Positions 8,187-28,257 are shown, counted from the stretch's first letter. The stretch is 64,000 bases of DNA from Taibaiella helva (GCF_003545695.1 NZ_QUZZ01000011.1:1-64000); one strand, 5' to 3'. Numbers and translations are program-made. Notes: generated by a model not told the origin, from the letters alone.

Positions 8187-8588
8187 TCAGCGTTCGAGGA
8201 TAGGGTCCGGAACAGCGAGTGCCAGCAGCTGTATAGCTTTCTTCTGAAAATCGATCAGCGCTTTTACTTCCTCTTTCAGCGACCGGATCTCCTGTAGCAG
8301 GATTTGTTCATTGTCCGCATTGCCTGCCTCCGCTGCAGGCATGCGGGGAGATAAATCTTCCCGGGGATTTTCCTGTGCAGGGACGCTTTGCAGCAGGGTA
8401 GCCAGGTCGGTCTGCAGGATGTCGGCGATAGCGGAAAGCAGTCGCACGTCCATGGATTTGTTGACGCCCCGCTCCATTTTAGCATAGGTCCGTTCATCCA
8501 TATACAGGCGCATAGCCATTTCTCTTTGCGTTATCCCTTTGAAGCGACGCAGCCTTTTAATATTCGTTCGGATATTGGCCAGGATCAT
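8187..8588 (-). CDS. XRE-family transcriptional regulator, module A
   Basis: The protein has 133 residues. Residues 5-62 form a Cro/CI-type helix-turn-helix (IRTNIKRLRRFKGITQREMA, then MDERTYAKMERG). A Pro/Ala-rich spacer follows, then an amphipathic helix (about 96-120, EIRSLKEEVKALIDFQKKAI) that could form a dimerising coiled coil. There is no ligand-binding or protease domain. It is paralogous to the regulator at 20347: same length, same helix-turn-helix wording (GITQREMA.(K/R)L...ERTY.K.ERG) and same C-terminal helix. Both sit on the minus strand ahead of a giant plus-strand surface-protein gene, so control of that gene is a reasonable inference. The 659-base gap between is AT-rich. Confidence 0.88.
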   Translation of the reverse strand: MILANIRTNIKRLRRFKGITQREMAMRLYMDERTYAKMERGVNKSMDVRLLSAIADILQTDLATLLQSVPAQENPREDLSPRMPAAEAGNADNEQILLQEIRSLKEEVKALIDFQKKAIQLLALAVPDPILER

Positions 8589-9004
8589 GTAGCAAATTTT
8601 CGAGATTAAATTTTAACAAATTTGTCTCCGTTTATGCCTTTGGTTGATTGGCTTGGTTGTGGTCGATTGGTGTTGCAAGATAGAGATATTTTTTAAAATT
8701 TTAATGCAAAACGTATGGATAAAAGGAGTGAAATCAGGGTTACCCCTGAGTTATTAAGAAGACTCATTATTTATAAAACAAAGCATTTTTTACCCATCGC
8801 AGGTTTCTCTTTAATGTTCTATAATTTTTTAAATTATTGTAAATCAATTATTTAAAATTCATATTCCATTTTTATTTTTAAACAATAGAAATTCTAAAAA
8901 ATCACTGCTGTGATTAAAATATTGTCTTTAGAGGGGGTACGAACGTGGGGGGCATTAGTGCTTTTTAAATAGTAATAAATAAAATGTAACTTTTTGTGCC
9001 CCTA

Positions 9005-9032
9005 AACCTACCCGAATACGTCCCCTTTCCGG
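9005..9032 (+). promoter_or_regulatory. Conserved upstream element with ACCTA dyad, module A
   Basis: AACCTACC, then ATACGTCC and a pyrimidine run, agree with 21143-21170 at 20 of 28 positions. ACCTA-N6-TACGT (9006-9021) forms a near-dyad with one mismatch. The element lies 41 bases before the -7 box, exactly as in module B, and covers the expected -33 region. It is a candidate operator or activator site. Confidence 0.5.
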
Positions 9033-9045
9033 TAGTACAAATGGA

Positions 9046-9053
9046 TACTTTTG
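9046..9053 (+). promoter_or_regulatory. -7 motif for giant gene A
   Basis: TACTTTTG is identical to the box before giant gene B (21184-21191). There is no good -33 TTTG at the usual spacing. Confidence 0.55.
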
Positions 9054-9099
9054 CTATCTGAAAATTTAACCTTAATTCCTAAATATTTTAACATTTGAA

Positions 9100-9231
9100 A
9101 TGGTGCAACCCGTTGCCTGCTCCGGCAATGCACCGGTAACCTGTATCCTCATGCGACGCCAATCCTATCTCCCGACCTGCCTGTTACCTGCCGCTTTCCA
9201 TGAACTGAACCAACTATCAACTCGCTTTTAA
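9100..9231 (+). CDS. Possible 43-residue leader peptide
   Basis: ATG to TAA open frame inside the 5' leader of giant gene A, ending 16 bases before its ATG. The product would start MVQPVACSGN and contains three cysteines, with no signal peptide or known motif. Module B has only 12-13 codon open frames in its leader, so conservation does not support it. It may be chance or a translated leader. Confidence 0.2.
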   Translation: MVQPVACSGNAPVTCILMRRQSYLPTCLLPAAFHELNQLSTRF

Positions 9232-9247
9232 TTCAATCCACACGTTT

Positions 9248-12200
9248 ATGACGCAAATTTTCCCAAAACAAAGACGTATGCTCCCCGAGGATAATCCGTG
9301 GCGGCATATGTTGTTCTTCTTGGTGGCCTTCGTCACCAATGCCATGAAAGGACGCCGCTTTCACCAGGAACGGCGCCGGATGCCGCTAAGGCCGGGTATG
9401 GCTGCAGCTGCAGCGCTGGCGATGCTGTTTCCCCTGCTAACGGCTATCCGGGCGGAGGCCTCGCACTTCCGCTACGGCAACATTACCTGGAGCCGGCCCG
9501 ATGCCGCTTCGCGCACGGTTACCTTTACGCTGACCCAATCTTACCGTATGTCCAACTGGACGGGTGTAAGTGTAGGCAGCACAATCAGCGACGGGGTCTT
9601 CCTGAGCTTCGGAGACAACAATTCGGAGCAGGTCAGTCTCAAAGTCAACTCGGTGAATGTTGCAGAAGACTATTTCATCGGTACGTTTACCACCACGCAC
9701 ACTTATTCTTCAAGCGGCAACTTCGAGGTGAGCTATTCCAACTGCTGCCGCCTGAGCACCTTGCAGAATAATGCTAATGGTAATTTCGGCCAGGTAACTT
9801 CGGTCAACCTGGGAACCAACAATCTCGGATCGCCTGTTTCCACCCTACCTCCTGTAGTAAGTGTTTCTACAGGTCTTTCCAATGCTACCTTCAATGTACC
9901 TGCTGCCGATCCTGATGGCGGCGCGCTGACTTATGCCTTGTCTGCTTCTGCCGACTTCGGCGGTGGCACCCAGGCGCCGGGCATCAGCATTGATGCGAAT
10001 ACCGGCACTGCCACTTTTAATACCGTAGGCAAAGCGGTAGGCACTTTATGGAGCGCTGCCTTTACAATTACCGATGCTACGGGTTCCAGGTCCGTGGTGG
10101 ATTTCCTGATCAAAGTTGTAGGCTCTTCCAACCCGCCCGTGTTCAATTATGCAGTAACTCCTTTGAATAATGCAGTGTACAATGTACACCCCGGCGATAA
10201 TATTGCTTTCACTGTTGCTGCTACCGATCCGGATGCAGGCGGCACCGTACTGCTCAACGGCGCCGGTCTGCCTACAGGCGCTTCCTTTAATCCCCCGGCT
10301 ACGCCCTCAGCAGCGCCCAGCACTAATTTCAGCTGGACGCCTACGGTAGCCCAGCTGGGTACTTATATATTGACCTTTGTCGCTACTGATAATGTGGGCG
10401 TACAGACCAGCACCACAGTGACGATACATGTTACTGCCGGTCCGCAGTTTATCACGCCCACGCCGCCAACAACGCCTGACAGGCTGCTGCTGACCGGGAC
10501 CACACTCAATGATGTCATTAAAGCGAGCAACCCCGATCCCTCTGTAAATACGAAGATTACTTCGGCCACAGTACCCGCCGGTGCTACGATCAGCCCATCG
10601 CTACCGACAGCCCTGAGCGGTACGCCGCAGGTAAGTGTCAGCTGGACGCCCATAGTAGGGCAGTGGGGCGACCATGCGTTCACCTTCGTTGCAGAAGACC
10701 AGAATAGCAATACCGCAACAAGAACCTATCATGTTGTCGCGAACACCAAACCCCAGTTCACATCGACGCCGGTTACCGCTGCGGTGGCTTGTGAGCCGTA
10801 CAGCTATACCATTACCGGTACAGATGTCGATCTGCCATATGGCGATGAGCTGGAATTTGAAGCGCATAGCGTTTTGCCTTCATGGCTTACCCTGACCAAT
10901 AATCCCGACGGAACCGCTACCCTGAGCGGTACGCCCGGCGCCGGCGATGTGGGTTCGTACAATATCGAACTGGTTGCCGCTGATATTTACCACCACTCCA
11001 GCACGCTTGTAGAGCAGCCTTTCACGATCGTTGTTGCTGCTGCAGCACCGGTTGCCGTAACCAATGGCGGTAATATTTGCTCAGGCAACAATGCCGTGTT
11101 CAACCTTACCGGACCTGCAGGTTATGTAGTGAACTACAATCTCAACGGGACCGGTGCGGCTTCAACAACGCTTTCGCCTTCAGGTACCGCTACGGTTACC
11201 GTTAACGGCGCCACCGCCAGCCAGGTGCTGAACCTGGCCTCCGTGGTAAACCCGGTAAACAGCTGTACCCGCAGCTTGAGCGGTTCTTCGTCTGTAACCA
11301 TCAACCCTGTGCCCACAGGCTCGGCTCCTGCCCAGGCAGTATGCTCCGGTGCAACAACCAGCGTTGCTCTTTCTGCATCCCTTCCCGGGTCAACTTATAC
11401 CTGGACTGCTGCCCTGCAATCCGGCAGCGCTACCGGTTTCAGCAATTGTGCTTCGGCTTGCGGCGATACGATCAGGCAAACCCTGGTCAACAGCGGTGCT
11501 GCGCCTGCTGTCGTACGCTACACGGTTACCCCTTCATCCGCACTGGGCTGCCCCGGCGCACCTTTTACGGTTGATGTAACGGTGAATCCGATCCCTGCAG
11601 GTACTGCTGTCGCGCAAACGATTTGTAGCGGCGCCGCGACCAACATCGCGCTGAACGCCGATGTAAGTGGTACGACCTTTTCCTGGACTGCCGCGTTGCA
11701 GTCCGGTGTGGTGACCGGCTTCAGCGATTGTAGCACGGGTTGCGGCAATACGATTGCCCAGGCGCTGACCAATGGCGGTACCGGTTCGGGTATCGTTCAC
11801 TATACCGTTACGCCTCAATTTGCCGGTTGTAGTGGTACACTCTTTACGGTAGATGCTACGGTTAACGCCATACCGGTGGCCCATGCCGGCGCCGATAGAG
11901 TGATCTGCAGTACGGGTGAAGCCCTGCAGGCAACGCCTGGTGTAGCGCCGCAAACCGGCGTATGGAGCATCATCAGTGGTCCGAGCACTGCCCCTGCGCA
12001 GTTTGCCGGCGTCAATGATGCGCAAACCGTATTTACACCGGCCATTGCCGGCGGCAGCTATACCCTGAAATGGACCCTGAGCAACAATGCCTGCGTCTCT
12101 TCTTCCGATACCGTGGTGATCACTTCGCTTGGTGCGGTACAAGGCACGATCACGGCATCAAGCAATGCTAATGTATGCAGCGGTCAGACCTCCAATATCA

Positions 12201-15200
12201 ACATCAGCGTAAATCCCGTATCGGGCGGTACGTTCAGCGGCACCTTCACCAATGGTAAGACCTTTGCCGGACTTACTCCTGCTGCGGGTATCATCAGCCC
12301 TTCGTACAGCTTCACCAACAGCAGCACCACGAACACGACGGAGTCCTTCGTGCTGGCTTCATTGGTATTCCATCCCAACAATGGTACCTTACCTACACCG
12401 GCTACCTGCAATGCTACGGCGCAAGCCATGGGCGGTCAGACGCTGGTTACCATTCAGCCCGTGGCTGACCTCGATGCCGTTGCTGCCGGTCCCGTTTGTA
12501 ACGGTGGTCAGGTAAGCATCGCCATCAGCAACCCCAACGCGGTTGGCGGTACTTATAACAGGACGGCGGTCTATAACGGTGCCGGGCATACAGCCGCCAC
12601 CAGCGTTTCCGGTATGAGCTACCTTAGTAATGAAAGCTTCATGGAGACCCTGACCAATAATACCAATGCCCCGGTTGATGTAGTGTATACTTTCACTCCT
12701 GTAAGCCCCGGTTCGCAAGGCTGTGTGGGCGCCATTAAAACTGTAACGGTTACGGTTAACCCAACACCCTCCATCGTTGCCGTTGCCGACCAGCAAGTAT
12801 GTAATGGCGCAGCTGCTAATGCGGTAAGCTTCAGCGGCGGTGTAAACGGCACCAGCTTCGAGTGGACCAACGATAATCCTGCTATAGGCCTGGCGGCCTC
12901 CGGTACCGGGAATGTCAGCGCCTTTAATGCCATTAATAACGGCATTGCTCCGGTTACGGCGCATATCCGCGTAACCACTAAAGCCAATGGCTGCACCGGC
13001 GTGGCAGATACTTTTGCCATTACGGTAAAGCCTACGCCTTCAGTACTCGCCACTGCCGATCAGAACAGCTGTAATGGCACTGCTACTGCAGCGGTAAGCT
13101 TCAGTGGCCCTGTAAGCAGTACTGTATTTAACTGGACCAATGACATGCCTTCTATAGGCCTGTCTGCATCCGGCTCTGGCAATATCGCTGCCTTCAACGG
13201 TATCAATAACGGTACGGCGCCAGTAGCCGCTGCGATCCGCGTGGTGCCTGTAGCAGACGGCTGTAACGGCGTTGCTGATACCTTTGCAATCACCATCAAG
13301 CCGACACCTTCTGTAATTGCTACCCAGGATGCTATTGTATGTAATGGCGCTGCCACAACATCGGTAAGCTTCAGCGGTCCCGTGGCCGGAAGCACTTTCC
13401 AATGGACCAATAGCGAGCCCTCTATCGGGCTGGCGGCATCAGGCAACGGTGCGATTGCTGCTTTTAATGCGATCAATAACGGTACTGTTCCGCTGACGGC
13501 TCATATCCGTGTTGTGCCGTCGGCTGATGGCTGTACCGGTGCAGCCGATACCTTTACGATTACCGTGAATCCTACGCCTGGCGTGGCAGCTACAGCTGAC
13601 CAGGCGGTCTGCAATGGCGCCGCTACCACAGTGGTTCCCTTTGCCGGTACTGTAGCCGGCACTACATTCAAATGGACGAACGACAATGCCGCTATCGGTC
13701 TTGCCGCTTCCGGTACCGGTACAATTGCTGCCTTCAATGGTATCAATAGCGGTACAGCCCCGGTAACCGCGTATATCCGTGTGCTGCCTGAAACCAATGG
13801 TTGCACCGGCACTGCCGATACGTTTGCGATCACGGTTAAACCTACCCCAAATGTTGCCGCTATAGCCGATCAATCGATCTGTAACAGCGTGGCGACAGCT
13901 GCGGTGCTCTTTAATGGCCCCGTTGCTGGTACCGTATTTCACTGGAGCAGCGACAATGCAGCTATCGGCCTTGCCGCCAGCGGGACCGGCGATATCGCCT
14001 CTTTTAATGCTATCAACAATGGCACAGCACTGGAGCAGACCCGTATCATCATTACACCAGTAGCGGATGGCTGCGATGGCCCGGCCGATACATTTGTGAT
14101 CGCAGTGAAGCCTACGCCTGTCGTAGCAGCTACTGCCGACCGGCCGGTGTGCAACGGTTCTTCAGCGGCCTTCTCCTTTAACGGTGCTGTGCCCGGAACC
14201 CTTTTCAGCTGGACCAATGACAATCCCTCCATCGGCCTTGCTGGCGGCGGATCCGGTGATATTGCTGCTTTCAATGCGGTCAATAATAGTACAACTGCAG
14301 TAACCGCTAACATTCGCGTTGTACCAGAAGCGAACGGCTGTACCGGCGCTGCCGATACTTTCGCGATCACTGTTCAACTTTCGCCCTCTTTCACTTTCAA
14401 TGTGAACGGTCAGGCTATGGCTAACGGTGGTACGGATACCATCTGCCAGGCAACCAGTACGACTTTTGCGATCAGCGGCGCTGCACCGGGGCATACATTC
14501 TCCATGTTGTTCAATGGTGCTGCCTATGCTACTGGAACAATAGATGCAAACGGTGGCTTTACGCATACCTTCATTTCCGGAGGTACGCCAACCAATACCA
14601 CTGCCGGCACCTATGAGCTTACCCTTACCGATAATGTGACTCATTGCACGGCAACAAAGACCTACCACATCTATGTCAATCCTAAACCGGCCGACTCCTT
14701 TGTCGTGAATGGCACGGTGCTGGCTGCCGGTCAGACCTCAACCTATTGCGAAGGCTCCGGCATTACCTTGGCTGTAGCCGGCGATGCCGGTCATACCTAT
14801 GTGATCAGCAAAGGCGGTAATAGCATTGCTTCAGGTAACGTGAACGGCCCGGCCTACGCGATCAACGCAGCAGCGATGAGCGACGCCGGTATCTATACCG
14901 TGGCGCTGACCAATACTGCTACTGGCTGTACCGCTTCACGTACCTACGAGCTGGCGATCAACCCGCTGCCACAGTATACGCTTACAGTGAACAATGCGGC
15001 ACTGGCCGACAATGCCACCACAACGCATTGCGCAGGTACCGCGGTGACCCTGGCGCTCACGGGAGATGCTTCTTCGACCTATACCCTGAGCTACGATGGT
15101 ACGCCGATAGCCAACGGTCACCTTGGCGATCCTGCTTATACTTTCACAGCAGCGACGACCGATGCCGGTAACTATAAGCTAGCGGTAACGACTGCTGCAG

Positions 15201-18200
15201 GATGTACGGGCAATTCCGCCTATACTATGGCGATCAATACTGCTCCGGAATTTGTCAGCATACCCAATGACCAGTTGGCGCAAACGCTTACTGGTACCTG
15301 CGCTGCACCAGTAAACTATGGCGCTCCTGTAGCAGATGGCGATCCTGTTCCTACGATGACTTATACGCTGAGCGGCGCCACAACCGGCTCCGGCAGCGGC
15401 GATGCCAGCGGCCTCGTGTTCAGCAAAGGTGTCACTACTGTAATGCTGACAGCACAGAACCTTTGCGGCAGCAGGGACAGCAGCTTCACCGTAAATGTGG
15501 AAGACGTGGAGCTCCCGGCATTTACTGCCTGCCCGGGCAACCTGACGGCGTTCTCCGCTGCCAACGATTGCGGCAACGACGTAGCGACAACCGTCCCGGC
15601 TTATACCGATAACTGCAACTTCGGTGCCAATCCCTTAAGCTGGACCATGACCGGCGCTACACTGGCTTCCGGTGCAGGCGCTATCGGTACCCACCACTTC
15701 AATGTAGGGGTAACGAATGTGCTGTATACCGTAACCGATGCTTCCGGTAACCAGAATACCTGCGGCTATACCGTAACAGTGGCAGACAATGTATTCCCGG
15801 TCATTTCCTGTTCGGGCAATATCGTGCAGGGCAATGATGCGGGTGTCTGCGGCGCCGTAGTGAATTTCAATGCGCCTGTGGCACAAGACAACTGCTCCGG
15901 CTATACCGTAGCCCAGACAGCAGGTCTGCCCGCCGGATCGCTGTTCCCGATGGGCGTTACGACCAATACCTTCGTCGTGACAGATGCTGCCGGTAATACC
16001 GCTTCCTGCTCCTTCACCGTAACTGTGAACGATGTACAGGCGCCTGTACTTACTACTCCGGCAGCACAAACTCTCAATGTAGGCGCCGGTAATAATTGCC
16101 AGGTGAATATGCCCGACTACAGGAGCCTGTTCCTGGTCAATGAAAATTGCGGTGGCAACGTGACCCTCGAGCAGCTGGCTCCGAACCAGCCCGGATCCCT
16201 GGTGATCGGCTACGGTGGTACCCGCTCGATTAAGGTGAAGGCAACTGATATCGCCGGTAACGCGCGTGTGGACAGTTTTACGCTGAACCTGACTGATGCG
16301 ACGGCTCCTGTTATAGTATGCAAGAATATCACCGTGAATCTGGATGCTGCGGGTAGCGCTACGATCACCCCCGCTATGATCGACAACAACAGTCATGATA
16401 ATTGCTCTGCCATTACGCTGTCTGCCAGCAAACTGAGCTTCGACTGTTCCAATATAGGCCAGAATGCGGTGATCCTTACCGCTACCGACGCTTCCGGTAA
16501 CAGCGCAAGTTGTACGGCTACTGTTACTGTTGCAGATGTCACCGCTCCTGCTTTGAGCTGCTGGTCCGATACTACTATGGAAAAAGGACCATTGTGCACC
16601 ACGGAGATCCCGGATATGACCTACAGGGTAACGGCTACAGATGCCTGCGGCCTGGCTACGGTAACCCAGAGCCCTGTCGCGGGTACCATTATCGCTGCTT
16701 TTACACAATCGGTTCCAGTAACGCTTACGGTTACTGATATTCATGGTAATGCAGCGCAATGTTCTTTTAATGTAAACTTTGCTGATCACGGCAAACCGGC
16801 TATCGTTAGCTTCCCTGCGGATATCGTGGTGAACAACGGCGCCGACAGCTGCGGCAAGCGTGTAAGCTGGACCGCTCCTATAGCTACCGACAACTGCGGT
16901 GTGTTGGGTGCCGCAAGCTTTACGAGCACGCATACGCCCGGTTCTGTGTTCCCTGTGGGAACGACCAAGGTAACTTATACCGCAACCGACCAGGCGGGCA
17001 ATGATTCCGTCCGTTCCTTCACTGTGACCGTGACCGACGCGCAGGCGCCGAAGATCGCTGGCTGTCCTGCAACGATCCAGGTAGGCACCGATGCGCATGC
17101 AACAAGCTGCAGCGCTACCGTGACCTGGACTGAGCCTACGGCTACAGATAACTGTACGCCTTCTGGCAGCCTGGTATGGACGAAAAGCCATCACCCCGGC
17201 GATGTATTCCCTGTCGGTACGACTACGGTAACGTACACCGCCACCGACGAGCATGGCAATACCAGCACAGCTTGTTCTTTTGATGTTGTAGTGACGGATC
17301 AAACAGCTCCGGTGCTGGATGGATGTCCTTCTGCACTGACCGTGTATACCGGCGCTAACGCCGCCGGCTGTGAGGCTACTGCTACCTGGACCGAGCCTAC
17401 GGCTACGGACAATTGTACGCCTTCAGGCAACCTGGTATGGACGAAGAGCCATCATCCCGGTGACGTATTCCCTGCGGGCATTACAACGGTAACTTACACT
17501 GCTACCGATGCTGCGGGCAATACCAGCGCGACCTGCTCTTTTGATGTAGCGGTGATCGACAATACGGTTCCGACGCTGAGCAATTGCCCGGCCACCGTAC
17601 AGGTGAGTACCGGTAACAGCACGACGCCTTGCGCGGCCGTTGCTACCTGGATAGAACCCATTGCTACCGACAACTGCACATCTTCAGGTAACCTGGTGTG
17701 GACGAAGAGCCATCAGCCCGGCGATGTATTCCCTGTGGGTATGACCCAGGTAAGCTATACGGCAACAGACGCCGCAGGTAATGTAAGCGCCACCTGCACT
17801 TTCAATGTAGTGGTTACCGACAATACTGCACCGGTGCTTACCGGCTGTCCTGCTTCAGTACAGGTGAATACCGGCGCCGGTGCGACCGGATGTGATGCAG
17901 TAGCTACCTGGACAGAACCTGCTGCTACCGACAACTGCACCCCGGCGGCTAACCTGGTATGGACAAAGAGCCATCAGCCCGGCGATGTTTTTCCTGTGGG
18001 CACGACTACGGTAACCTATACCGCTACCGATGCTGCAGGCAACGTAAGCGCCGCCTGTACTTTCGATGTAACCGTTACCGACAATACCGCACCGGTATTC
18101 AGCAACTGCCCTACATCGATGAGCAATATAGCGACCAACAGCAACGGCTGCACCGCAGAGATCGCGACAGCAGCACCTGCTGTAACCGATAACTGCAATA

Positions 18201-19069: not shown

Positions 19070-19076
19070 CCAGCTT

Positions 19077-19108
19077 ACCGGCCCGGCTGTAACCTGCAGC
19101 CGGGCGGT
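19077..19108 (+). other. GC-rich intercistronic hairpin, module A
   Basis: ACCG plus CCCGGCTG (19077-19089) pairs with CAGCCGGG plus CGGT (19097-19108), leaving one bulged base. It lies between the giant gene stop and the next ATG and has no T-run. It may lower read-through or protect the upstream mRNA. Module B has a similar hairpin at 26308-26336. Confidence 0.6.
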
Positions 19109-19145
19109 CAGGCAAGTATTATTCAGCGTATTCAAACCAACGATT

Positions 19146-20180
19146 ATGAAATCACTATTCGGTAAAATAATCTGCGCAGGCGCACTGTTATGTTCCTTGC
19201 CAGATACGGGATTTGCGCAAACCATTCCGCAGGCAGATCTCTTCCTTACCGGCGGTCCCAATATGGGGACTTATCCGGGATATGTGTCGCCAGGTACTTA
19301 TGATGTTACTTTTTCCAATGCTACCGGCGTGCTGCTGCTGCCGCACGCTTTCGCTATTTCACTGGCGCTGCCTTCCGGCTTCGAATTTGCGGAGAGCTAC
19401 CCGGGATGCCCTACCGACTGGAATTATACCCGTACCAGCGCCACCTCTGTGTTGCTGGAGCCCACCGCTGCTGTAGCCGGCTTCCCGCCTGTAAGCATCG
19501 TCAGTTTCTCGGTACCTTTTAAGACCACCGCTGCAGTAAGCAACCAGACTTACCAGGGCCAGATCTTCCAGTACATTCCTATGTACATCGATCCCAACCA
19601 GGGTAACAACAGTCCCACCGGAACGGTAAGCGTGGCCGGTGTGCCGCTTCCCGTGGCTTTTGGATCCATGAGCGCCAACACTAAAGGATGCGAGGTGAGC
19701 ATTGACTGGACAACACTCAATGAGCTGCGCAATGATTACTTCAGCGTAGAACGCAGCGGCGATGGTGTACGCTTTGCATCCATTGCTAAAGTAAAATCGC
19801 AAGGCAGTGGTTCTGAAGAGCGCGCATATCATTACTCCGATGTCCATCCGCTTAAGGGTAAGAATTACTATCGCGTGGTGCAGCACGATGCCGACGGTAA
19901 GACGACCACAACTCCGGTTGCCAATGCAGCCGTGGAGTGCGGCCAGCCGCTCATCGACCTGTTCCCCAACCCGGCAACAGATGTGGTGAAGGTACGGGGT
20001 ATGCAGGGCGACAATACCGTGAGGGTATTTAATGCACTGGGCCAGGTCATCATAGAAGAAGCAACAGACGAAGCGATTCACCCGGTGAACACTTCAGGAC
20101 TGGCTGCAGGCACTTATCATCTGCAAGTGATCAAGGGAACACAGATCATCTTCAACGGCAAGTTTGTAAAGGCGGAGTAA
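19146..20180 (+). CDS. T9SS-sorted partner protein, module A
   Basis: The 344-residue protein has a signal peptide (MKSLFGK to about GFA|Q at 25). A beta-rich N-terminal domain follows (about 25-165, with PGTYDVTFSNATG). Next is the VSIDWTTLNE...YFSVERSGDG...YYRVVQHD domain typical of Bacteroidota proteins just before a sorting domain. The type A T9SS C-terminal domain runs from about 272 (LIDLFPNPATDVVKV) to the end (GTYHLQVIKGTQIIFNGKF). Such proteins cross the outer membrane by type IX secretion and are usually anchored through A-LPS after CTD cleavage. It is paralogous to the protein at 26378. It lies 76 bases after the giant gene on the same strand, with a terminator behind it, so the two probably form one operon. 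Confidence 0.88.
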   Translation: MKSLFGKIICAGALLCSLPDTGFAQTIPQADLFLTGGPNMGTYPGYVSPGTYDVTFSNATGVLLLPHAFAISLALPSGFEFAESYPGCPTDWNYTRTSATSVLLEPTAAVAGFPPVSIVSFSVPFKTTAAVSNQTYQGQIFQYIPMYIDPNQGNNSPTGTVSVAGVPLPVAFGSMSANTKGCEVSIDWTTLNELRNDYFSVERSGDGVRFASIAKVKSQGSGSEERAYHYSDVHPLKGKNYYRVVQHDADGKTTTTPVANAAVECGQPLIDLFPNPATDVVKVRGMQGDNTVRVFNALGQVIIEEATDEAIHPVNTSGLAAGTYHLQVIKGTQIIFNGKFVKAE

Positions 20181-20200: not shown

Positions 20201-20236
20201 AACGGGTTGCTTCATCAGAGGCAGCCCGTTTTTTTC
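20201..20236 (+). terminator. Terminator closing module A
   Basis: A 10-bp stem with one mismatch (20201-20210 with 20221-20230) is followed by a run of T, 21 bases past the stop codon. Confidence 0.8.
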
Positions 20237-20296
20237 GCTTAATCTAATCGTGATGCATAAGGGAAAATGCTTGCCGGGTAAGGATTTCGGGAAAAT

Positions 20297-20326
20297 GAAA
20301 AACGGTTGCCGCAGCAACCGTTTTTC
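20297..20326 (-). terminator. Terminator after the module B regulator
   Basis: A perfect 13-bp stem (20297-20309 with 20314-20326) with a 4-base loop and A/T flanks lies 20 bases past the stop of the minus-strand XRE gene. Confidence 0.8.
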
Positions 20327-20346
20327 GTAAAGACCAGGTTCGTCCT

Positions 20347-20739
20347 TCAGGCACTTTTCAGGTGTTTCAGCGTCTCTTTCTGGCAGAGGATCAGCTCCCG
20401 GATCTCATCTTTCAGCTTGCTGATCTCAACGGCGATGTCTGCCGGCCTTGAAGCGTTGTCTATGCCGCAGGCGTGGTTCTCCTGCAAAGCGGTAGCAGGG
20501 TCGAGTGCTACCTGTTCGGCAGCCAGCGTTTCTGGATCTTTAAGCAAATTACAGATCTTGGTATGCAGGATGTCGGCAATGGATGCGACGAAACGGATAT
20601 CCATTGATTTTTGTTCGCCTCTTTCGATCTTGGAATAAGTACGCTCCTCGATAAAAAGTTTGGCGGCCATTTCTCTCTGGGTAATGCCTGCAGATTTTCT
20701 AAGTTTTTTGATGTTGCATCGGATAGCATTTAATTCCAT
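20347..20739 (-). CDS. XRE-family transcriptional regulator, module B
   Basis: The 130-residue protein has a Cro/CI helix-turn-helix at residues 5-62 (IRCNIKKLRKSAGITQREMA, then IEERTYSKIERG). A variable middle and a C-terminal amphipathic helix follow (about 100-125, EISKLKDEIRELILCQKETL). It is clearly paralogous to the regulator at 8187 and holds the same position: minus strand, upstream of a giant plus-strand surface gene. Its own hairpin terminator separates it from module A. The 776-base gap to the giant gene contains several perfect dyads that could be binding sites. Control of the neighbouring giant gene is inferred from position and from the duplicated layout. Confidence 0.88.
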   Translation of the reverse strand: MELNAIRCNIKKLRKSAGITQREMAAKLFIEERTYSKIERGEQKSMDIRFVASIADILHTKICNLLKDPETLAAEQVALDPATALQENHACGIDNASRPADIAVEISKLKDEIRELILCQKETLKHLKSA

Positions 20740-21041
20740 AAAACGGGGGTTTTCAGGGGTGGGTTAATAGGTGGTTTACGGTTCTTTTGTTAAAAAAACA
20801 GAACAGGGCGGTTCATTTTTTCAACATAAAGTTAGGAATTGTAAAAATATAAATGTCTATTTTTTTCTCCTTTTTAATGATCTAAGTCTTTTTACGTAGT
20901 TATACGCAATTTTGATTTTGAGTTGAAAAATATTCGGTTGGCGATTTTTTTATGAGGTATAAATACCATTATTTACGAGAATAAATCCTTTTTGAATTGA
21001 TTTTTATGCATTTAAATATGTTTTTCTTCTTTTGAAATGCA

Positions 21042-21067
21042 AAACTTAAATATTTATATTTAAGTTT
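21042..21067. promoter_or_regulatory. Perfect 12-bp AT-rich dyad
   Basis: AAACTTAAATAT and ATATTTAAGTTT flank a 2-base centre, about 120 bases before the module B -7 box. It is a candidate protein-binding dyad. The AT richness raises the chance of coincidence. Confidence 0.4.
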
Positions 21068-21088
21068 AATTTGAATTATACTCTATGT

Positions 21089-21105
21089 AAAATACCAGGT
21101 ATTTT
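21089..21105. promoter_or_regulatory. Perfect 8-bp dyad AAAATACC-A-GGTATTTT
   Basis: A symmetric 17-base site lies 38 bases upstream of the conserved element. The GGTAT half-site recurs at 20956-20967. It is a possible operator for the neighbouring XRE regulator. Confidence 0.45.
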
Positions 21106-21142
21106 CCCGCTTCTTTATCATATTAGCATAATTTGATAGTAT

Positions 21143-21170
21143 AACCTACCTTGATAGGTCCTTTTTTCTG
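21143..21170 (+). promoter_or_regulatory. Conserved upstream element with ACCTA dyad, module B
   Basis: AACCTACC, ATAGGTCC and a T-run agree with 9005-9032 at 20 of 28 positions. ACCTA-N6-TAGGT (21144-21159) is a perfect dyad. Distance to the -7 box is 41 bases, as in module A. Confidence 0.5.
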
Positions 21171-21183
21171 AAAATTTTAGCGC

Positions 21184-21191
21184 TACTTTTG
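21184..21191 (+). promoter_or_regulatory. -7 motif for giant gene B
   Basis: TACTTTTG fits TAnnTTTG and is identical to the module A box. No -33 TTTG is found at the normal distance. Confidence 0.55.
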
Positions 21192-21515
21192 TGTTAAAAT
21201 TTTCTCATCTATTTCTTCCCCCTTTTCAATGTCGGGCGAAAGTTATATAGGGAGAAAACCGACCCTTTAAACCCGATAAACCGATTTAGCCTATGAACGA
21301 CCTGTCACCATTTTTCTTGCTCATGGTATAGCATTCTGACCCCATAGCTATATCCTCTCAGATGAAATAGTTTTCATCCGGATCGTCTCCGAAGCCCGCT
21401 TCTGTGACCGGCACCTCGATGCCCTCAACGTAACCGGAGCAACGGCCTTGTCCCTTACATAACGGTTCATGTAGAATTACCCAGCTATCTTTTATAAACC
21501 CTTAAACAATTACCA

Positions 21516-24500
21516 ATGATTAAGCTAAACGCAAAGGGAGATACTTCTCCCAGGATGATGCAGGCCCACCAGGGCAAGGATCAGGCCCCTGTCTATACGA
21601 ACAGGCGGTTTGCGCCGGCCCTGCAGGCGATCAGGCGGCTCGCCGCCCACCGGGGATCACCATTTTCCCGGGTAACGAGAACGTTGGCGCTGACTGTGCT
21701 GGCCGTACTGGCTTATGCTACAGCGGGAGCGCAGGTGTACACCAATGACTTCGACGGCTCATCGATTATCAGCAGCAATATAAGTGCCTCCGTCTGGACA
21801 GGCGGCGCGACGGGAACCAGCCTCTGCGGCGCTAATGGCCTGGTGAGCCCCGGCTCGGGCACCTCGTACAATTTTTCCATCACGCTTACGGTAGCTCCGG
21901 GCTACCAGATGCAGATCACGAGCATTTCAGCCGATATGCGGCGTTCATCGGTTCCCGGCTACAGCAATGCGCAGGTAAAGATCGGCGCAAGCAACTATGG
22001 AACCCCGGCTGTCCCTGGCTTTCTCGGCTGTGTGAACCCCGGCGGCGTGTCCACGGTATCGGGCCTTACCGGAGCGCAAACGATCAGTTTTTCCGGTACC
22101 AAGCCCAACTCGGAATCTGTCTCGCTGGATAATGTACAGATCCAGGGAACGATTACCTGCATCAGCCCTTCTGCCTTCAATGTCAGCAATCCTACACCTT
22201 CGGCCTGCGGCTCGGCAGCAATCAGCTTGTCCGGCAGCCAGGCCGGCGTGAACTACCAGCTTTATGTAAGCACTATGGCGGCGCCTTCCCCGGCTGCTGT
22301 AGGAGCACCGGTACCCGGTACCGGCGCTGCGCTCAGCTGGTCCGGTATGTTGCCCGGTACCTATGCTGTAGTGGGCAGCACCGGATCTTGTCAGACCAAT
22401 ATGACCGGTTCGGCCATTGTAAAGGAAGATCCTTCTGTATACACTGTTTCAGGAAGCGGCAATATTTGCCTGAACCCTCCCGGCGGCACGATGCCTATCG
22501 CTTTGAGCGGCAGCCAGATCGGTGTCAATTATCAATTGTATAATGGCGCGTCTCCGGTAAGCCCTGCCCAGATACAGGCCGGTAATGGCGCTACGCTTAC
22601 CTTTACCGCCAGCGCTGCCGGTACCTATACGGTGAAAGCCGAGCCCAGCGCAACAGTGTGCGGACCGGTGGTAATGACCGGTAATGCTGTTGTTACAGTA
22701 AGCCAGCCGGTCGCTTCTATCAACGGGAACAATGGTGAATTCTGCTCCGGCGGCGGTAACGGCGTCTGGACCATCAGCGGTACGCCCCTGGCGGTGGTTT
22801 CCTATACCGTGACCGGCGGCGCTCCCGGTACGCCTTATTCCAATACTGTGAATGTGCAACCCGATGGTACCGCTACGATCACCGTTAATGGCATTACGGC
22901 CAATACCGTTGTTACGCTCAATTCGGTGCAAAACACTACCGGCTCCAATGGCTGTACCCAGAACATTACCGGCCAGAGCAGCACCCTGGTGGTACGCCCG
23001 GCACTGAGCGCTTCTATTGCGGCTTCTGAAGCGGTATGCGAAGGCGATAACTTCAGCAATATTACCGTGACTTCCAATACCGGTACTGCTTATGCCCGTA
23101 CCGTGTACTACAGCCGCCGCGTCAATTCCGGCTCCTACAGCAGCCAGCCTTCGCTGAGCTTCCCTATGGGTGTGACTTCTGTGAATGTAAGCGTATCCGG
23201 TATCAACCCTTCTGTGCTGGGTACCGACTATACGTACAGGCTCGACTCTATACGGTATGATGCACCGCCAAATTGTACGGTGCCGCTGAACCAGACCATT
23301 ACAAAGACGGTTAAGCCGAGGCCTGTTTTCAGCTTCGAGATGAACGGTGTCGTGCTGCATGCCGGCGCTTCGGATACAATCTGCATGCAACCCCTGAGCG
23401 GCATGATCCAGTTCAACATAGCCAATACCACTCCCGGCTTTACTTACAGCGTGAGTCGTAACAGCGCGCCTTTCGGCAGCAGCGGTACAGTAAACAATAA
23501 TGGTACCGGGCTGGTGCAAAGCATCAACTTCTCTCCCGCCGGTACTTACCAGGTAACGGTGAACAACCCGAACAACGGCTGTTCAAAAACGCTGACTTAT
23601 ACCGTGATAGAATTGCCCCGTCCGCCGATCGCTTATTATGTAAACGGGCAGCTGGTAACTAACGGCAGCACCATACAACTTTGCTCCGGCCAGACTGGCG
23701 TAAGGGATTCGCTGGTATCGGCTGCCGGTGCTACCTTCAGCATTACCGGTTCCTCCCTGTTTAACGCTTCCGGCAGCATTCCCGGCCCAGGCGCTTATGT
23801 CAGCACGCAATCCGCTCCAAGCGTGAGCAGCGTAACCACTTACAGCGCTACCATTACGTTGAGCGCTAATCCGCTCCTGGCTTCCGGCTGCGATTCCTCT
23901 ATCAGCTTTAATGTGCAGGTTAATCCGCTGCCTGCGCTGGCCGGCAATGTTTATTACAACAACCAGCTGGTGACAGCAGAAAGCACCGTTGAAATGTGCG
24001 AAGATGCCAGTCCCGCGATCCGCATTACCGGTACGCCCGGCTATACTGTCGAGATCCACTACAACAAGGGCACCAGCCTGGGCTCCTTTACCCAGCTGCA
24101 AACCGGCGTGATCGGAACCAATGGTGAATATGTATGGAACAGCGCCAACGGAACTTTCGGCAACGACTGGAGCGCCGGCTTCGATCAATATTGCTCCAGC
24201 CCGACCCGTATGTTCTATCATATCGAAGTGAAGAACCCCAATACCTGGTGCAGCAACACCTTCGACTTTAAAGCGAAGATCAACCAGAAGCCAAGCATCC
24301 GCGTAGGCTATGCTTACAACAACAACACGACCAGCATGTCTTCTTTCGGTAGCACCGGTACCGCAATCAATGCGCCTACCGATACCGTAAGCGTATGCTA
24401 TAATGCCGGTTCCAGTGATCTTAAATTCTTCTTCAACTGGGATGCTGCGCACAACATCAGCAATTTCGACGAAGTGTGCGGCAGCGGCACCACTAATACG

Positions 24501-26297
24501 ATCCTGTTCGAGCTGCGTAAAGGCGGCGTGAGCGGTACATTGGTACATTCCGGAAGCCTGACGGCAAGCGGTGTGAACAGCACGGTCCAGATGCCGGTAA
24601 CTGCCGGAAGCTCGGGCCTGTACACCCTGATCGTGCGGAACTCCGACAATGGTATGATGTCTGGCGTGGTATGTGATTCTATCCGTTCTTTCTGGGTGAA
24701 AGCCAATGCTGCCCCGGTATATACCTTTATCGAGACCAATACGGTAGCGACTCCCGGTGCGGATATTACCGCTCCCATTACCGGCGCCACTGCTTCTTCA
24801 GCGAATCCCGTGAAATTCTGCGAAGGCTATCCCAAATCTGTGACCATCTCCGGAGCCGTAGGACAAACCTACTGGATCACCCGCATTTCCGGTCCCGGCG
24901 CTGCCCAGAATTTTGGCAGCTCCGGCAGCCCGCTGGCACTGGCCCCGGGCGGCGCTACGCACCAGTTCAACAGCCTGGCTGTTGGCGTGCATCACTACCT
25001 GCTGACTGTTATGTCGGCCCCGGGTGCCTGCCCTGCTTATCGTTCTTTCCAGGTGCAGATCACCGAGATGCCCAAGCCTGTGCTGAAGGTGAATGGCGTA
25101 ATCATTGCCCCGGGATCTACGCACAATTTCTGCCAGGAAGAAGAGACCCATTATACGATCACAGGCATACCCACCGGTATCCCGTATCAGTTCTTCCAGG
25201 GCAACACCATGATCGCCAGCGGCATTTCTGCCAGCGTGGAATCATCTGTGATTACCCTGGTAAGCCAGCCTAACCTTGCCGGCCCCTATACGATCAAGGT
25301 GAACAATACTGCTACTTCATCCTGCGACTCGTCTTACAGCTTCAACATCACGGTAACCGATCGTCCGGACATTACGATCGATTCTGTGAAGCATGTAATG
25401 GTATGTAACGGGGACAATTCCGGTGTGCTGTATTACCACTATGTGGCCCTGGGCAGCTCGACTGTAAATACCAAGCTGTTCCGTAACGGTACACAGGTGC
25501 TGAATTCTACCAGCGCTAACCAGGCGCTTGCCCTGTCTACGACTAACCTGTATGCCGGCAATTACCTGCTGGTGATCGCCAGCAATGGCTGCGCCGACAG
25601 CGCCGGGTTTACCATTACAGAACCGGCTACTCCGGTGCTCCTCCAGGTAACCGGTACCGATACCGCCTGCGGTGTCGCGCTCGGATCCGTAACCTTCTCG
25701 GTACAAGGTGGCAGTCCTTCGTATGCTGTGAAGATATTCGTAGGTGCCACTACCACGATCGCACAGCAGACCGTACTGCCCAATGCGGATACCGGCTATA
25801 CATTTGCAGGACTCTCCCCCGGTGCGTATACCATACAGGTTACCGATGCGCTGGGTTGTGTGAAGACAGCAACCTTTACCATCAACAACTGCAGCGCACC
25901 TGATATCGTGCCTGTAGCCAATATGGCCAGCAACAACTATTCTCTCGCCGGTACGACAGCGCTGCCCATACAGCTGCGCCTGTACAACATCGGACAGGTG
26001 AACAGCAATGGCTCCATATCTGCAGGTTTCCTGTTGCCGGCAGGCTTCAGCATTTCCAATACCGGCCTTACCCCGGGATGGACCGTAAGCACTTCCGGTC
26101 CTGTAACGATCCTGACCTCTGCTACAGCTGTCGTGCCTTCGGGAGCAAGCCCGCTGGTGGTTACCGGTAACCTGATCCTTACCGGCTCTACCTCCAAAGG
26201 TATCTATGGTGTAGTGATCCAGGTTGCCCCCGGAAGCGGCGGTGAATCGAACAGTTCCAACAATACCACCAATACGATCATCAATGTGATCGACTAG
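21516..26297 (+). CDS. Large Ig/SprB-like-repeat surface protein, module B
   Basis: The 1593-residue secreted protein begins with about 57 mostly basic residues before the hydrophobic core TLALTVLAVLAYATAGA. The only Met codons ahead of the core are 1, 14 and 15, so the long N-region appears real. Residues 75-210 form a discoidin-like or jelly-roll-like beta domain (YTNDFDGSS...SVSLDNVQIQGT). Repeated Ig-like units of roughly 80-110 residues follow to about 1280. Residues 1285-1455 hold SprB-like repeats (LLQVTGTDTACG, SFSVQGGSPSYAV, LSPGAYTIQVTDALGC). The last 135 residues resemble the end of the 3273-residue protein (QVAPGSGGESNSSNN). No type A or type B T9SS domain is evident. A cell-surface adhesive role is inferred. 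Confidence 0.88.
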   Translation: MIKLNAKGDTSPRMMQAHQGKDQAPVYTNRRFAPALQAIRRLAAHRGSPFSRVTRTLALTVLAVLAYATAGAQVYTNDFDGSSIISSNISASVWTGGATGTSLCGANGLVSPGSGTSYNFSITLTVAPGYQMQITSISADMRRSSVPGYSNAQVKIGASNYGTPAVPGFLGCVNPGGVSTVSGLTGAQTISFSGTKPNSESVSLDNVQIQGTITCISPSAFNVSNPTPSACGSAAISLSGSQAGVNYQLYVSTMAAPSPAAVGAPVPGTGAALSWSGMLPGTYAVVGSTGSCQTNMTGSAIVKEDPSVYTVSGSGNICLNPPGGTMPIALSGSQIGVNYQLYNGASPVSPAQIQAGNGATLTFTASAAGTYTVKAEPSATVCGPVVMTGNAVVTVSQPVASINGNNGEFCSGGGNGVWTISGTPLAVVSYTVTGGAPGTPYSNTVNVQPDGTATITVNGITANTVVTLNSVQNTTGSNGCTQNITGQSSTLVVRPALSASIAASEAVCEGDNFSNITVTSNTGTAYARTVYYSRRVNSGSYSSQPSLSFPMGVTSVNVSVSGINPSVLGTDYTYRLDSIRYDAPPNCTVPLNQTITKTVKPRPVFSFEMNGVVLHAGASDTICMQPLSGMIQFNIANTTPGFTYSVSRNSAPFGSSGTVNNNGTGLVQSINFSPAGTYQVTVNNPNNGCSKTLTYTVIELPRPPIAYYVNGQLVTNGSTIQLCSGQTGVRDSLVSAAGATFSITGSSLFNASGSIPGPGAYVSTQSAPSVSSVTTYSATITLSANPLLASGCDSSISFNVQVNPLPALAGNVYYNNQLVTAESTVEMCEDASPAIRITGTPGYTVEIHYNKGTSLGSFTQLQTGVIGTNGEYVWNSANGTFGNDWSAGFDQYCSSPTRMFYHIEVKNPNTWCSNTFDFKAKINQKPSIRVGYAYNNNTTSMSSFGSTGTAINAPTDTVSVCYNAGSSDLKFFFNWDAAHNISNFDEVCGSGTTNTILFELRKGGVSGTLVHSGSLTASGVNSTVQMPVTAGSSGLYTLIVRNSDNGMMSGVVCDSIRSFWVKANAAPVYTFIETNTVATPGADITAPITGATASSANPVKFCEGYPKSVTISGAVGQTYWITRISGPGAAQNFGSSGSPLALAPGGATHQFNSLAVGVHHYLLTVMSAPGACPAYRSFQVQITEMPKPVLKVNGVIIAPGSTHNFCQEEETHYTITGIPTGIPYQFFQGNTMIASGISASVESSVITLVSQPNLAGPYTIKVNNTATSSCDSSYSFNITVTDRPDITIDSVKHVMVCNGDNSGVLYYHYVALGSSTVNTKLFRNGTQVLNSTSANQALALSTTNLYAGNYLLVIASNGCADSAGFTITEPATPVLLQVTGTDTACGVALGSVTFSVQGGSPSYAVKIFVGATTTIAQQTVLPNADTGYTFAGLSPGAYTIQVTDALGCVKTATFTINNCSAPDIVPVANMASNNYSLAGTTALPIQLRLYNIGQVNSNGSISAGFLLPAGFSISNTGLTPGWTVSTSGPVTILTSATAVVPSGASPLVVTGNLILTGSTSKGIYGVVIQVAPGSGGESNSSNNTTNTIINVID

Positions 26298-26307
26298 GAT
26301 GGATTTT

Positions 26308-26336
26308 GTCCGGGCGGCGCTTGCCGCTGCCCGGAC
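26308..26336 (+). other. GC-rich intercistronic hairpin, module B
   Basis: GTCCGGGC (26308-26315) pairs with GCCCGGAC (26329-26336), with an inner GGC/GCC pair. It lies between the giant gene stop and the partner ATG and is followed by an A-rich, not T-rich, tract. It parallels 19077-19108. Confidence 0.6.
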
Positions 26337-26377
26337 ATTTAAAAAAATTACCCGGTTTTACCCCAAAAACAATTCCT

Positions 26378-27445
26378 ATGAAAAACATATTCAAAACCAT
26401 TTTGGCCTCCCATATGGTGCTGGCAGCCGGTTTGCTTGCAACAGAAAGCAAGGCGCAGCCCATAGCCGCTTCACTGACGGGCGGATTGTCGGGAGCCCCA
26501 GCCTTTTTCAATGCCGGGAACTTTACCGGTTTTGTTGTCCCGGGCACATTTGATCTTACTTTCGGTAATGCCTCGGCGCCCCTGCTGCCGGCCGGCAGCC
26601 TGGAGATCAAAGCTGTGCTGCCTGTGGGCATGAGCTTCGATGCCTATACACCGCCTTCGGGATGGAGCTATACGATCATCGATCCTCAGAATGCAGTGCT
26701 GGCCAATACGGCCGACATCGGCTACGGGCTTTTTCCGCCGACGAATAGCAACAGCACTGCAGTGTTTCATATCCCGGTCAAGACTACAGCCTCTTTTGCC
26801 AACAGGACCTATGTAGCCTTTATCCAGGGAACAGGACCTTTCCATACAACCCCCATTCCTGTTGCAGGCATCAATTCGGCCCAGGGAACTGTATCGGTAG
26901 CGAACAACCCGCTACCTGTGTTGTTCACTTCGTTCACAGTAACAAAAAAAGAAGGCTGCGCTGCGGAGCTGAACTGGGAAACGGCGATGGAAAAGAACAA
27001 CGATCATTTTGATGTAGAACGCAGCGCCGACGGTACCAAGTTCTCAATGATCGGTACCGTAAAAGGATCCGGCAACAGTTCAGAGCTGAAACAGTATACT
27101 TATCTTGACGAGCATCCCTTACAAGGACATAACCTGTACCGTATACGGCAGGTGGATCTCGATAAGAAATCGGATGTTTCCAGGACAGAAGGCGTCAAGC
27201 TGGATTGTCTTGTTGAAGGAATAGCAGTATATCCCAATCCTACTACCGGTATTATCTATATCAAGGGTTTGAGCGACAAGGGCACAGCTACCATACTGAA
27301 CGCTGTGGGTCAGAAAGTGATGGAACGCGACCTGGAGAACAGCATTGAGGGTATGAATATCTCCTCGCTGACCAACGGTATTTACCAGCTGCAGGTCTTC
27401 AACAGCGATAAAGTGATCTTTACGACCAAGGTGATCAAGAAATAA
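26378..27445 (+). CDS. T9SS-sorted partner protein, module B
   Basis: I chose the ATG at 26378 because it starts a clean signal peptide (MKNIFKTILASHMVLAAGLLATESKA). The longer frame from a TTG at 26306 would run through the hairpin. The protein has 355 residues: a beta-rich N-terminal domain (PGTFDLTFGNASAPLLPAG, matching PGTYDVTFSNATG in the module A partner), then AELNWETAMEKNNDHFDVERSADG and NLYRIRQVDLD. A type A T9SS domain follows from about residue 280 (IAVYPNPTTGIIYIKGL) to GIYQLQVFNSDKVIFTTKV. It is paralogous to the 344-residue protein at 19146 throughout. Type IX secretion and surface anchoring are expected. It probably shares a transcript with the giant gene (81-base gap). Confidence 0.88.
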   Translation: MKNIFKTILASHMVLAAGLLATESKAQPIAASLTGGLSGAPAFFNAGNFTGFVVPGTFDLTFGNASAPLLPAGSLEIKAVLPVGMSFDAYTPPSGWSYTIIDPQNAVLANTADIGYGLFPPTNSNSTAVFHIPVKTTASFANRTYVAFIQGTGPFHTTPIPVAGINSAQGTVSVANNPLPVLFTSFTVTKKEGCAAELNWETAMEKNNDHFDVERSADGTKFSMIGTVKGSGNSSELKQYTYLDEHPLQGHNLYRIRQVDLDKKSDVSRTEGVKLDCLVEGIAVYPNPTTGIIYIKGLSDKGTATILNAVGQKVMERDLENSIEGMNISSLTNGIYQLQVFNSDKVIFTTKVIKK

Positions 27446-27472
27446 TGCTGCCGTTAATGATGTGTGCTGCAT

Positions 27473-27505
27473 AAGGCTGTCCTCAAGTGACCGGGGACAG
27501 CCTTT
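27473..27505 (+). terminator. Hairpin after the module B partner gene
   Basis: A 10-bp stem (27473-27482 with 27495-27504) is followed by a short T-run. It may be a terminator or may only partly stop transcription ahead of the barrel gene. Confidence 0.6.
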
Positions 27506-27543
27506 GCCTTCCTTGTATCTGTTTTCCCTTTAAACCCTGAACC

Positions 27544-28257
27544 ATGTTATCCTTATCTATTTCTACCGGGAGGCTGTTGCGGTGCATATTGCTGGGCGCC
27601 GGTCTGGCTTATATGCCTGCCGGAACGATACATAGCCAGCCGGAACCGGCGACGGAGCAGCTGGGTGTTTCCCTTGGCGGCGGCTATGCTTTCGGCCATA
27701 CCGACTTTGCCTGGACCAATACGATCCCTTCGCCCGTGTTTGGCGTTGGCCTGCATTATTTCTCTCTTTCTTTTCTGCAGATCGGCCTGGATGGCCAGGT
27801 GGGCTGGCTGAAGGGCGGCAAGTCCGGGGAAGCCGAATCGGCACAGACAGGCTTTAAAGACCGCTTTACGGTTTTGTGTCTTTCCTTCCGTTTCTTCCCC
27901 GGTGCGCTGGCCGATAACCCGGGCAGAGACAAGGTGCTGCAGGCGCTTTCGGGTATTTATGCCGGCAGCGGATTGGGTTACCTGCACAATGATGGCAAAG
28001 CGAATCCTATGCCACTGGCCATTTACGGCTCGAAGAACAATTATAAAAACAGTACTTTGTATATTCCCTTAGAACTGGGTGTCAATATTCCCCTGGCCCG
28101 GCAAAAAAAGAATCTATTCCTTCTGAACCTCAATTTCCGGGCCGGTTTGTGCTTGTCTGATGAAGTTGACGGCTATGTCCCTACTGTGACGGCGAACCAG
28201 CATAATGATGCATTCAGCACCTTGACGGCGGGGGTTATTTATAAGTTTGGCTTATAA
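27544..28257 (+). CDS. Outer-membrane beta-barrel protein
   Basis: The 237-residue protein has a signal peptide (about 1-32, ending IHSQ) and alternating hydrophobic/polar strands rich in Gly and aromatics (SLGGGYAFGHTDFAW, FGVGLHYFSLSFLQIGLDG). It ends in the C-terminal strand LTAGVIYKFGL, typical of outer-membrane barrels. The length suggests about eight to ten strands. It lies 98 bases after the module B partner gene on the same strand. In gliding Bacteroidota the adhesin SprB is followed by the barrel SprF, but this protein is shorter than PorP/SprF (usually over 300 residues) and I cannot assign it to that family. Module A has no equivalent. Confidence 0.75.
   Translation: MLSLSISTGRLLRCILLGAGLAYMPAGTIHSQPEPATEQLGVSLGGGYAFGHTDFAWTNTIPSPVFGVGLHYFSLSFLQIGLDGQVGWLKGGKSGEAESAQTGFKDRFTVLCLSFRFFPGALADNPGRDKVLQALSGIYAGSGLGYLHNDGKANPMPLAIYGSKNNYKNSTLYIPLELGVNIPLARQKKNLFLLNLNFRAGLCLSDEVDGYVPTVTANQHNDAFSTLTAGVIYKFGL

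What the first reader, a model, noticed from the sequence alone, without database searches (positions are those of the whole stretch)
8187..28257. Two paralogous XRE / giant surface protein / T9SS-tagged partner modules in tandem
Directly visible: the same order and orientation occurs twice. A 130-133-residue XRE regulator lies on the minus strand. A 660-780-base AT-rich gap follows, then a giant secreted repeat protein on the plus strand, then a 344-355-residue protein with a T9SS CTD. Regulators and partner proteins are clearly homologous between modules, and the giant proteins share their end domain. Inference: a self-contained regulated surface-display system that arose by duplication and then diverged in repeat content. 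I know of no named system with this three-part layout.
Basis: partly seen in the sequence, partly recalled or inferred. Interest (0 to 1): 0.8.

Follow-up and report, generated by a model that had tools for sequence, protein, structure and literature searches.

The report
Split cargo for type IX secretion
Two neighbouring gene sets in a soil bacterium (Taibaiella) each make a giant surface-type protein that lacks the usual export tag, plus a small neighbour that carries the tag; the same two-gene arrangement recurs in related bacteria, suggesting that the small protein ferries or anchors the giant one.

Summary
In detail: two tandem XRE(-)/giant(+)/partner(+) modules lie between an M17 aminopeptidase gene and lysS. 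T. koreensis has both; another Taibaiella genome has one at the same site, so tandem duplication is well supported. The interpretation needs changing. The XRE is not part of the conserved unit: it flanks the pair only in Taibaiella, and a third triad in the same genome uses an unrelated XRE. What is conserved is the giant-partner pair. Giants lack every known T9SS sorting domain (types A, B, C) and end, within 0-1 residue of the stop, in an unnamed CARDB/CLIPPER-like domain. The next gene encodes an N-terminal beta domain, an FN3-like domain and a type A CTD: 26 of 30 loci, 8 of 9 Chitinophagaceae genera assessed. Evolutionary distances of the giant's terminal domain track the partner's N domain (r 0.81) far better than the same partner's CTD (0.29). 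One relative has the terminal domain fused directly to a CTD. Best explanation, not proven: a split T9SS cargo in which the partner supplies the CTD in trans. A pseudo-complex structure prediction was inconclusive. New variant of a known kind.

The parts
8187..8588 (-). module 1 XRE regulator (133 aa): HTH_3 domain plus C-terminal coiled-coil-like tail; Taibaiella-specific accessory
   Evidence: tail judged by eye from the sequence
8589..9247 (.). module 1 divergent AT-rich intergenic region; TACTTTTG (Bacteroidota -7-like) at 9046-9053 inside a block conserved with T. koreensis
9248..19069 (+). module 1 giant (3273 aa): signal peptide after a ~50 aa extension, integrin-beta-like N domain, PKD/HYR repeats; no T9SS CTD
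   Evidence: signal peptide judged by eye
18659..19066 (+). module 1 giant's terminal CARDB/CLIPPER-like domain, ending at the stop codon
19070..19145 (+). giant-partner spacer with strong hairpin (-30.1 kcal/mol, z -3.6)
19146..20180 (+). module 1 partner (344 aa): signal peptide, N beta domain, FN3-like domain, T9SS type A CTD
20347..20739 (-). module 2 XRE regulator (130 aa)
20740..21515 (.). module 2 divergent AT-rich intergenic region; TACTTTTG at 21184-21191; conserved 12-aa upstream ORF at 21293-21331
21516..26297 (+). module 2 giant (1593 aa), no T9SS CTD
25881..26294 (+). module 2 giant's terminal domain, ending at the stop codon
26298..26377 (+). giant-partner spacer with strong hairpin (-29 kcal/mol, z -3.5)
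26378..27445 (+). module 2 partner (355 aa), T9SS type A CTD
27544..28257 (+). outer-membrane beta-barrel protein (237 aa) after module 2; present in T. koreensis, absent in G149, so not part of the core

Best explanation
The conserved unit is a two-gene split T9SS cargo. The giant repeat protein goes to the periplasm by its signal peptide, folds, and docks through its C-terminal CARDB/CLIPPER-like domain onto the N-terminal beta domain of the small partner made from the next gene. The partner's type A CTD then takes the complex through the SprA/PorV translocon, or tethers the giant to a surface-anchored partner, so the giant is displayed without a CTD of its own. In Taibaiella a divergent XRE protein has been added as a probable regulator, and one locus was tandemly duplicated. 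Shown: missing CTD on the giant, strict terminal position of the domain, recurrent adjacency, type A CTD on the partner, correlated evolution of the two domains, a fused relative, SprA in the genome. Inferred: physical docking, export in trans, regulation by XRE.
For: (1) Giants have no sorting domain of type A, B or C: none over the libraries in the two window giants, in six further giants, or in any of 21 terminal domains, though models of these types are in the libraries. (2) 31 of 32 distinct terminal domains end 0-1 residue before the stop. (3) In Chitinophagaceae 26 of 30 loci have a gene with a type A CTD directly downstream on the same strand, gap 11-196 bp. (4) Control: of 30 CTD genes of the own genome, none was seen followed by another CTD gene (14 had a same-strand downstream gene in view), and only the four partners follow a terminal-domain protein. 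(5) Terminal-domain distances correlate with partner N-domain distances (r 0.81-0.83) but weakly with the same partner's CTD (0.29) or FN3-like part (0.46); without close relatives 0.60-0.65 against 0.09-0.23; partial r 0.75-0.82, permutation p 2e-4. (6) L135 (G281, 930 aa) carries the terminal domain followed directly by a type A CTD, TIGR04183 43 bits. (7) SprA is present, 2472 bits. (8) T9SS passes large folded cargo (established knowledge; translocon structure in PMC10994853).
Against: No experiment, and no interface was predicted: the AlphaFold pseudo-complex (read-through fusion of the own-genome C3 pair) gave good domains but pTM 0.39, so docking has no structural support. The mirror-tree signal could also come from linkage, since the two domains are neighbours in DNA while the CTD may be exchanged with other cargo genes. 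Four Chitinophagaceae loci do not fit: G278 partner without CTD, G083 and G162 partners with dockerin-like ends, one G214 locus without partner. Outside the family only 2 of 8 loci pair with a CTD gene. Homology of the partner N domain to the terminal domain is only suggestive (hhalign probability 27-39%).
Confidence: 0.55

Rival explanations
1. The giant's terminal domain is itself a new type of T9SS sorting signal, read directly by the translocon or a shuttle; the partner is a separate cargo or an outer anchor.
For: Strictly C-terminal position like known CTDs; Ig-like beta-sandwich, and type A CTDs are also Ig-like (PMC12618676); orphan copies without adjacent partner in G579 and G630.
Against: Does not explain why 26 of 30 loci keep a CTD gene next door, nor the correlation with the partner's N domain rather than its CTD; one relative has both the domain and a type A CTD in one chain, redundant if the domain were itself a signal.
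Confidence: 0.2
2. Two independent cell-envelope proteins in one operon: the partner is exported by T9SS, the giant stays in the periplasm or leaves another way; no physical contact.
For: No interface predicted; functional neighbours often share operons.
Against: Correlated evolution of two particular domains; recurrence of the same adjacency in eight genera with otherwise different giants and upstream regions.
Confidence: 0.15
3. One reading: an XRE-regulated, self-contained three-gene surface-display system.
For: Triad in the window twice, in T. koreensis, in G149, and with an unrelated XRE at C3 of the own genome and C18 of T. koreensis; conserved promoter-like blocks in the divergent region.
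Against: XRE not seen beside the pair outside Taibaiella and at three Taibaiella loci (own C34, two in G103); XRE homologues also stand alone.
Confidence: 0.1

Closest known systems
T9SS type A cargo (TIGR04183 / PF18962)
   Same: Partner has a signal peptide and a type A CTD; repeat adhesin-like architecture is typical of T9SS cargo.
   Different: The large chain has no CTD; the CTD sits on a separate small protein.
Type B cargo with cognate PorP/SprF shuttle (SprB-SprF; PMC12618676)
   Same: Giant adhesin followed directly by the gene of a dedicated delivery partner; orphan giants might share a partner.
   Different: There the giant carries a type B CTD and the partner is an outer-membrane barrel; here the giant has no CTD and the partner is itself a type A cargo.
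Cohesin-dockerin attachment to an anchored protein
   Same: Non-covalent docking of a large protein's end domain onto an anchored receptor is the proposed logic; partners with dockerin-like ends occur in G083 and G162.
   Different: The docking domain here is a beta-sandwich (CARDB/CLIPPER-like), not a dockerin.
CARDB domain / CLIPPER (DUF11) domain of fibrillar adhesins (PMC12617251)
   Same: Fold: TM-score by target 0.80 (3idu) and 0.75 (9ifr).
   Different: No CARDB, DUF11 or other convincing Pfam/NCBIfam match for the 21 members; strictly C-terminal instead of a stalk repeat.

Membership tests
T9SS cargo (giant) | C-terminal sorting domain of type A, B or C | tested here: not met
   No TIGR04183, TIGR04131/PF13585 or NF033708 match in eight giants and 21 terminal domains
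T9SS cargo (giant) | N-terminal Sec signal peptide | tested here: inconclusive
   Hydrophobic stretch and AxA-like end seen (m2 ...LAVLAYATAGAQ), after a ~50 aa extension; no predictor was run
T9SS type A cargo (partner) | TIGR04183/PF18962 at the C-terminus above cut-off | tested here: met
   Both window partners; 26 of 28 partners scanned in all
T9SS type A cargo (partner) | Translocon component SprA in the genome | tested here: met
   TIGR04189 2472 bits at G000:C11
Type B cargo + SprF pair | Type B CTD (TIGR04131/PF13585) on the giant | tested here: not met
Type B cargo + SprF pair | PorP/SprF-family barrel downstream | tested here: not met
   Downstream 237 aa barrel matches OMP_b-brl only, no PorP/SprF model, and is absent in G149
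CARDB / CLIPPER domain family | Sequence match to PF07705 or DUF11 | tested here: not met
   No such match among 21 members at E<=1; fold similarity only. The C34 giant (L079) has one weak CARDB hit, below cut-off
Split T9SS cargo (proposed) | Physical complex of giant and partner | tested here: inconclusive
   Pseudo-complex pTM 0.39; mirror-tree positive
Split T9SS cargo (proposed) | Giant's surface exposure depends on the partner's CTD | not testable with these tools
   Needs deletion and fractionation
XRE-giant-partner triad | XRE linked to the pair across genera | tested here: not met

The most novel reading that the evidence does not exclude
A class of T9SS cargo without any sorting domain is exported in trans: a dedicated C-terminal docking domain binds the N domain of a CTD-bearing adaptor from the next gene, so giant adhesins invisible to CTD-based prediction are T9SS cargo.
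Probability: 0.45. Interest if true: 0.78.

Novelty: new variant of a known kind. Interest (0 to 1): 0.62.

Why it matters
T9SS cargo lists are built by searching for CTDs. If a CTD can be supplied in trans, large surface proteins of many Bacteroidota have been missed, and piggyback export becomes testable: the operons, the candidate docking domain and its candidate receptor domain are named here. The terminal domain is a strictly C-terminal family without a Pfam or NCBIfam model in the copies searched.

Tried and rejected
(a) XRE as part of the core: rejected by family, genus and upstream surveys. (b) Named relatives by one genome-contig scan: only T. koreensis returned. (c) First models from Taibaiella sequences alone found almost nothing outside the genus; adding the diverse pairs (A8, A10) was needed. 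(d) AlphaFold pseudo-complex by reading through the stop codons of the own-genome C3 pair (an artificial single chain, used only because the tool folds one chain): no confident interface. (e) Homology of partner N domain and terminal domain by hhalign: collinear but weak, 27-39%. (f) Rfam and tRNA scans of the window: nothing. (g) Literature: eight searches of the open-access library found no description of CTD-less T9SS cargo carried by a CTD partner; subscription papers are mostly not held. (h) The spacer hairpins are not classic terminators (no T-run); they may set giant:partner stoichiometry, untested. (i) The domain-to-stop 'tail' figures printed were wrong (a weak first domain was taken instead of the best) and were recomputed.

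Full report
OBSERVATION. The window comes from a Taibaiella genome: G001, in the same genus, is T. koreensis by its named contig (contig of 846,093 bases). XRE of 133 and 130 aa on the minus strand; intergenic gaps of 659 and 776 bases at 34% G+C; giants of 3273 and 1593 aa; partners of 344 and 355 aa with a type A CTD. Regulators are 44%, partners 39% and giant ends 30% identical between modules. T. koreensis has the same double module; genome G149 has one module at the same site between the M17 aminopeptidase and lysS genes (gene names from the sequences, my knowledge). Tandem duplication is therefore well supported. Trees separate m1 and m2 clearly for partner and terminal domain (99-100%), less strongly for XRE, but place G149 differently and weakly, so the timing of the duplication relative to G149 is open.

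WHAT IS CONSERVED. The giants have no T9SS sorting domain. In the own genome two further loci have a CTD-less secreted protein followed at once by a small CTD protein: C3 (L078, with an unrelated divergent XRE) and C34 (L079, no XRE). Models built from such pairs found the giant's terminal domain in 20 of 296 Chitinophagaceae genomes (10 of 103 genera) and in a few other families of the class. Across everything fetched, 31 of 32 distinct copies end 0-1 residue before the stop codon. I assessed 30 Chitinophagaceae loci from 9 genera: in 26, from 8 genera, the next gene on the same strand, gap 11-196 bp, encodes a protein with a type A CTD. The four exceptions are G278 (adjacent partner-like protein, no CTD found), G083 and G162 (partner with a dockerin-like end; Dockerin_1 just above cut-off in G162) and one G214 locus with no partner. 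Outside the family, 2 of 8 loci pair with a CTD gene; G579 has four giants with similar ends and one adjacent partner, which could be shared. As a control, none of 30 CTD genes of the own genome was seen followed by another CTD gene (14 had a same-strand downstream gene in view), and only the four partners were preceded by a terminal-domain protein.

THE DOMAINS. The terminal domain is predicted at pLDDT 95.8 and resembles CARDB (3idu, TM by target 0.80) and CLIPPER/DUF11 (9ifr, 0.75) (CLIPPER is described in PMC12617251). None of 21 members has a convincing Pfam, NCBIfam or PDB sequence match. The partner is a signal peptide, a beta domain of similar size (142-167 against 129-157 aa) and similar strand pattern in the model, an FN3-like domain and a type A CTD. 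Profile comparison of the two beta domains is collinear but weak.

MECHANISM. Three lines point to the terminal domain and the partner's N domain acting together. First, adjacency. Second, correlated evolution: terminal-domain distances track N-domain distances (r 0.81-0.83) and not the CTD (0.29) or FN3-like part (0.46) of the same partner; with close relatives removed the figures are 0.60-0.65 against 0.09-0.23; partial correlation 0.75-0.82, permutation p 2e-4. Linkage of neighbouring DNA, with exchange of CTDs among cargo genes, could give part of this. Third, in G281 a 930 aa protein has the terminal domain followed directly by a type A CTD in one chain, so the split form may replace a covalent link by a non-covalent one. 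The simplest reading is docking: the partner lends its CTD. The genome has SprA. Physical docking was not shown; an AlphaFold run on an artificial read-through chain of the C3 pair gave pTM 0.39. The type B system (giant plus downstream SprF shuttle; PMC12618676, PMC10202324) shows that dedicated delivery partners encoded next to giant adhesins exist, but there the giant carries its own CTD.

REGULATION. TACTTTTG, a Bacteroidota -7-like motif (consensus from my own knowledge), lies in both divergent regions (9046-9053, 21184-21191), in T. koreensis and in G149, within blocks conserved with T. koreensis. That XRE acts there is inference. Upstream neighbours differ in other genera: AraC-type (G163, G215), Crp/Fnr-type (G032) or no obvious regulator (types judged by eye). 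The 76-86 base giant-partner spacers at the syntenic locus carry strong hairpins (z -3.5 to -6.5), absent in the 36-base C3 spacer.

CAVEATS. ORFs were called mechanically; partner adjacency in some loci was judged on 1.5 kb of downstream sequence. My CTD model was built from some of the same partners, so the NCBIfam results are the independent test: 26 of 28 partners scanned are above cut-off. The upstream survey listed ORFs of at least 70-90 aa only. The literature check covers open-access papers only.

Noticed in passing
window 21293-21331: A 12-codon upstream ORF (MNDLSPFFLLMV*) in the module 2 leader, nearly identical in T. koreensis (MNDLSPFFFFMV*), followed by a short inverted repeat; leader-peptide-like.
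   Followed up: partly
window 19070-19145 and 26298-26377; L059:8299-8381; L060:12201-12282; L061:6436-6521: Strong G+C-rich hairpins in the giant-partner spacers without a T-run; appear to be kept by compensatory changes between the two species (judged by eye).
   Followed up: partly
L089:9346-11517 and 8046-9170 (own genome C11): A second kind of pair: a CTD-less 723 aa protein whose end looks dockerin-like by eye (no Pfam hit), followed by a 374 aa protein with a type A CTD.
   Followed up: partly
L141:2669-5248 and 1630-2613 (G533): Possible relay: giant with terminal domain, then an 859 aa protein with a dockerin-like end (by eye), then a 327 aa protein with a weak cohesin match (below cut-off) and a type B CTD.
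   Followed up: partly
L165, L168, L171, L172 (G579): Four giants with similar terminal domains but only one adjacent CTD partner; a shared partner is possible.
   Followed up: no
window 9248-9900: Giant 1 begins with an integrin-beta-like N domain (PF24907, SIBA-E_N); both giants have a ~50 aa extension before the signal peptide.
   Followed up: no
window 17123-18096: A 261-base tandem repeat (HYR units), 3.7 copies at 75% matches, in giant 1.
   Followed up: no
L053:10219-10608 (G149), L056:14181-14519 (G103): Homologues of the module XREs that stand away from any giant-partner pair.
   Followed up: partly
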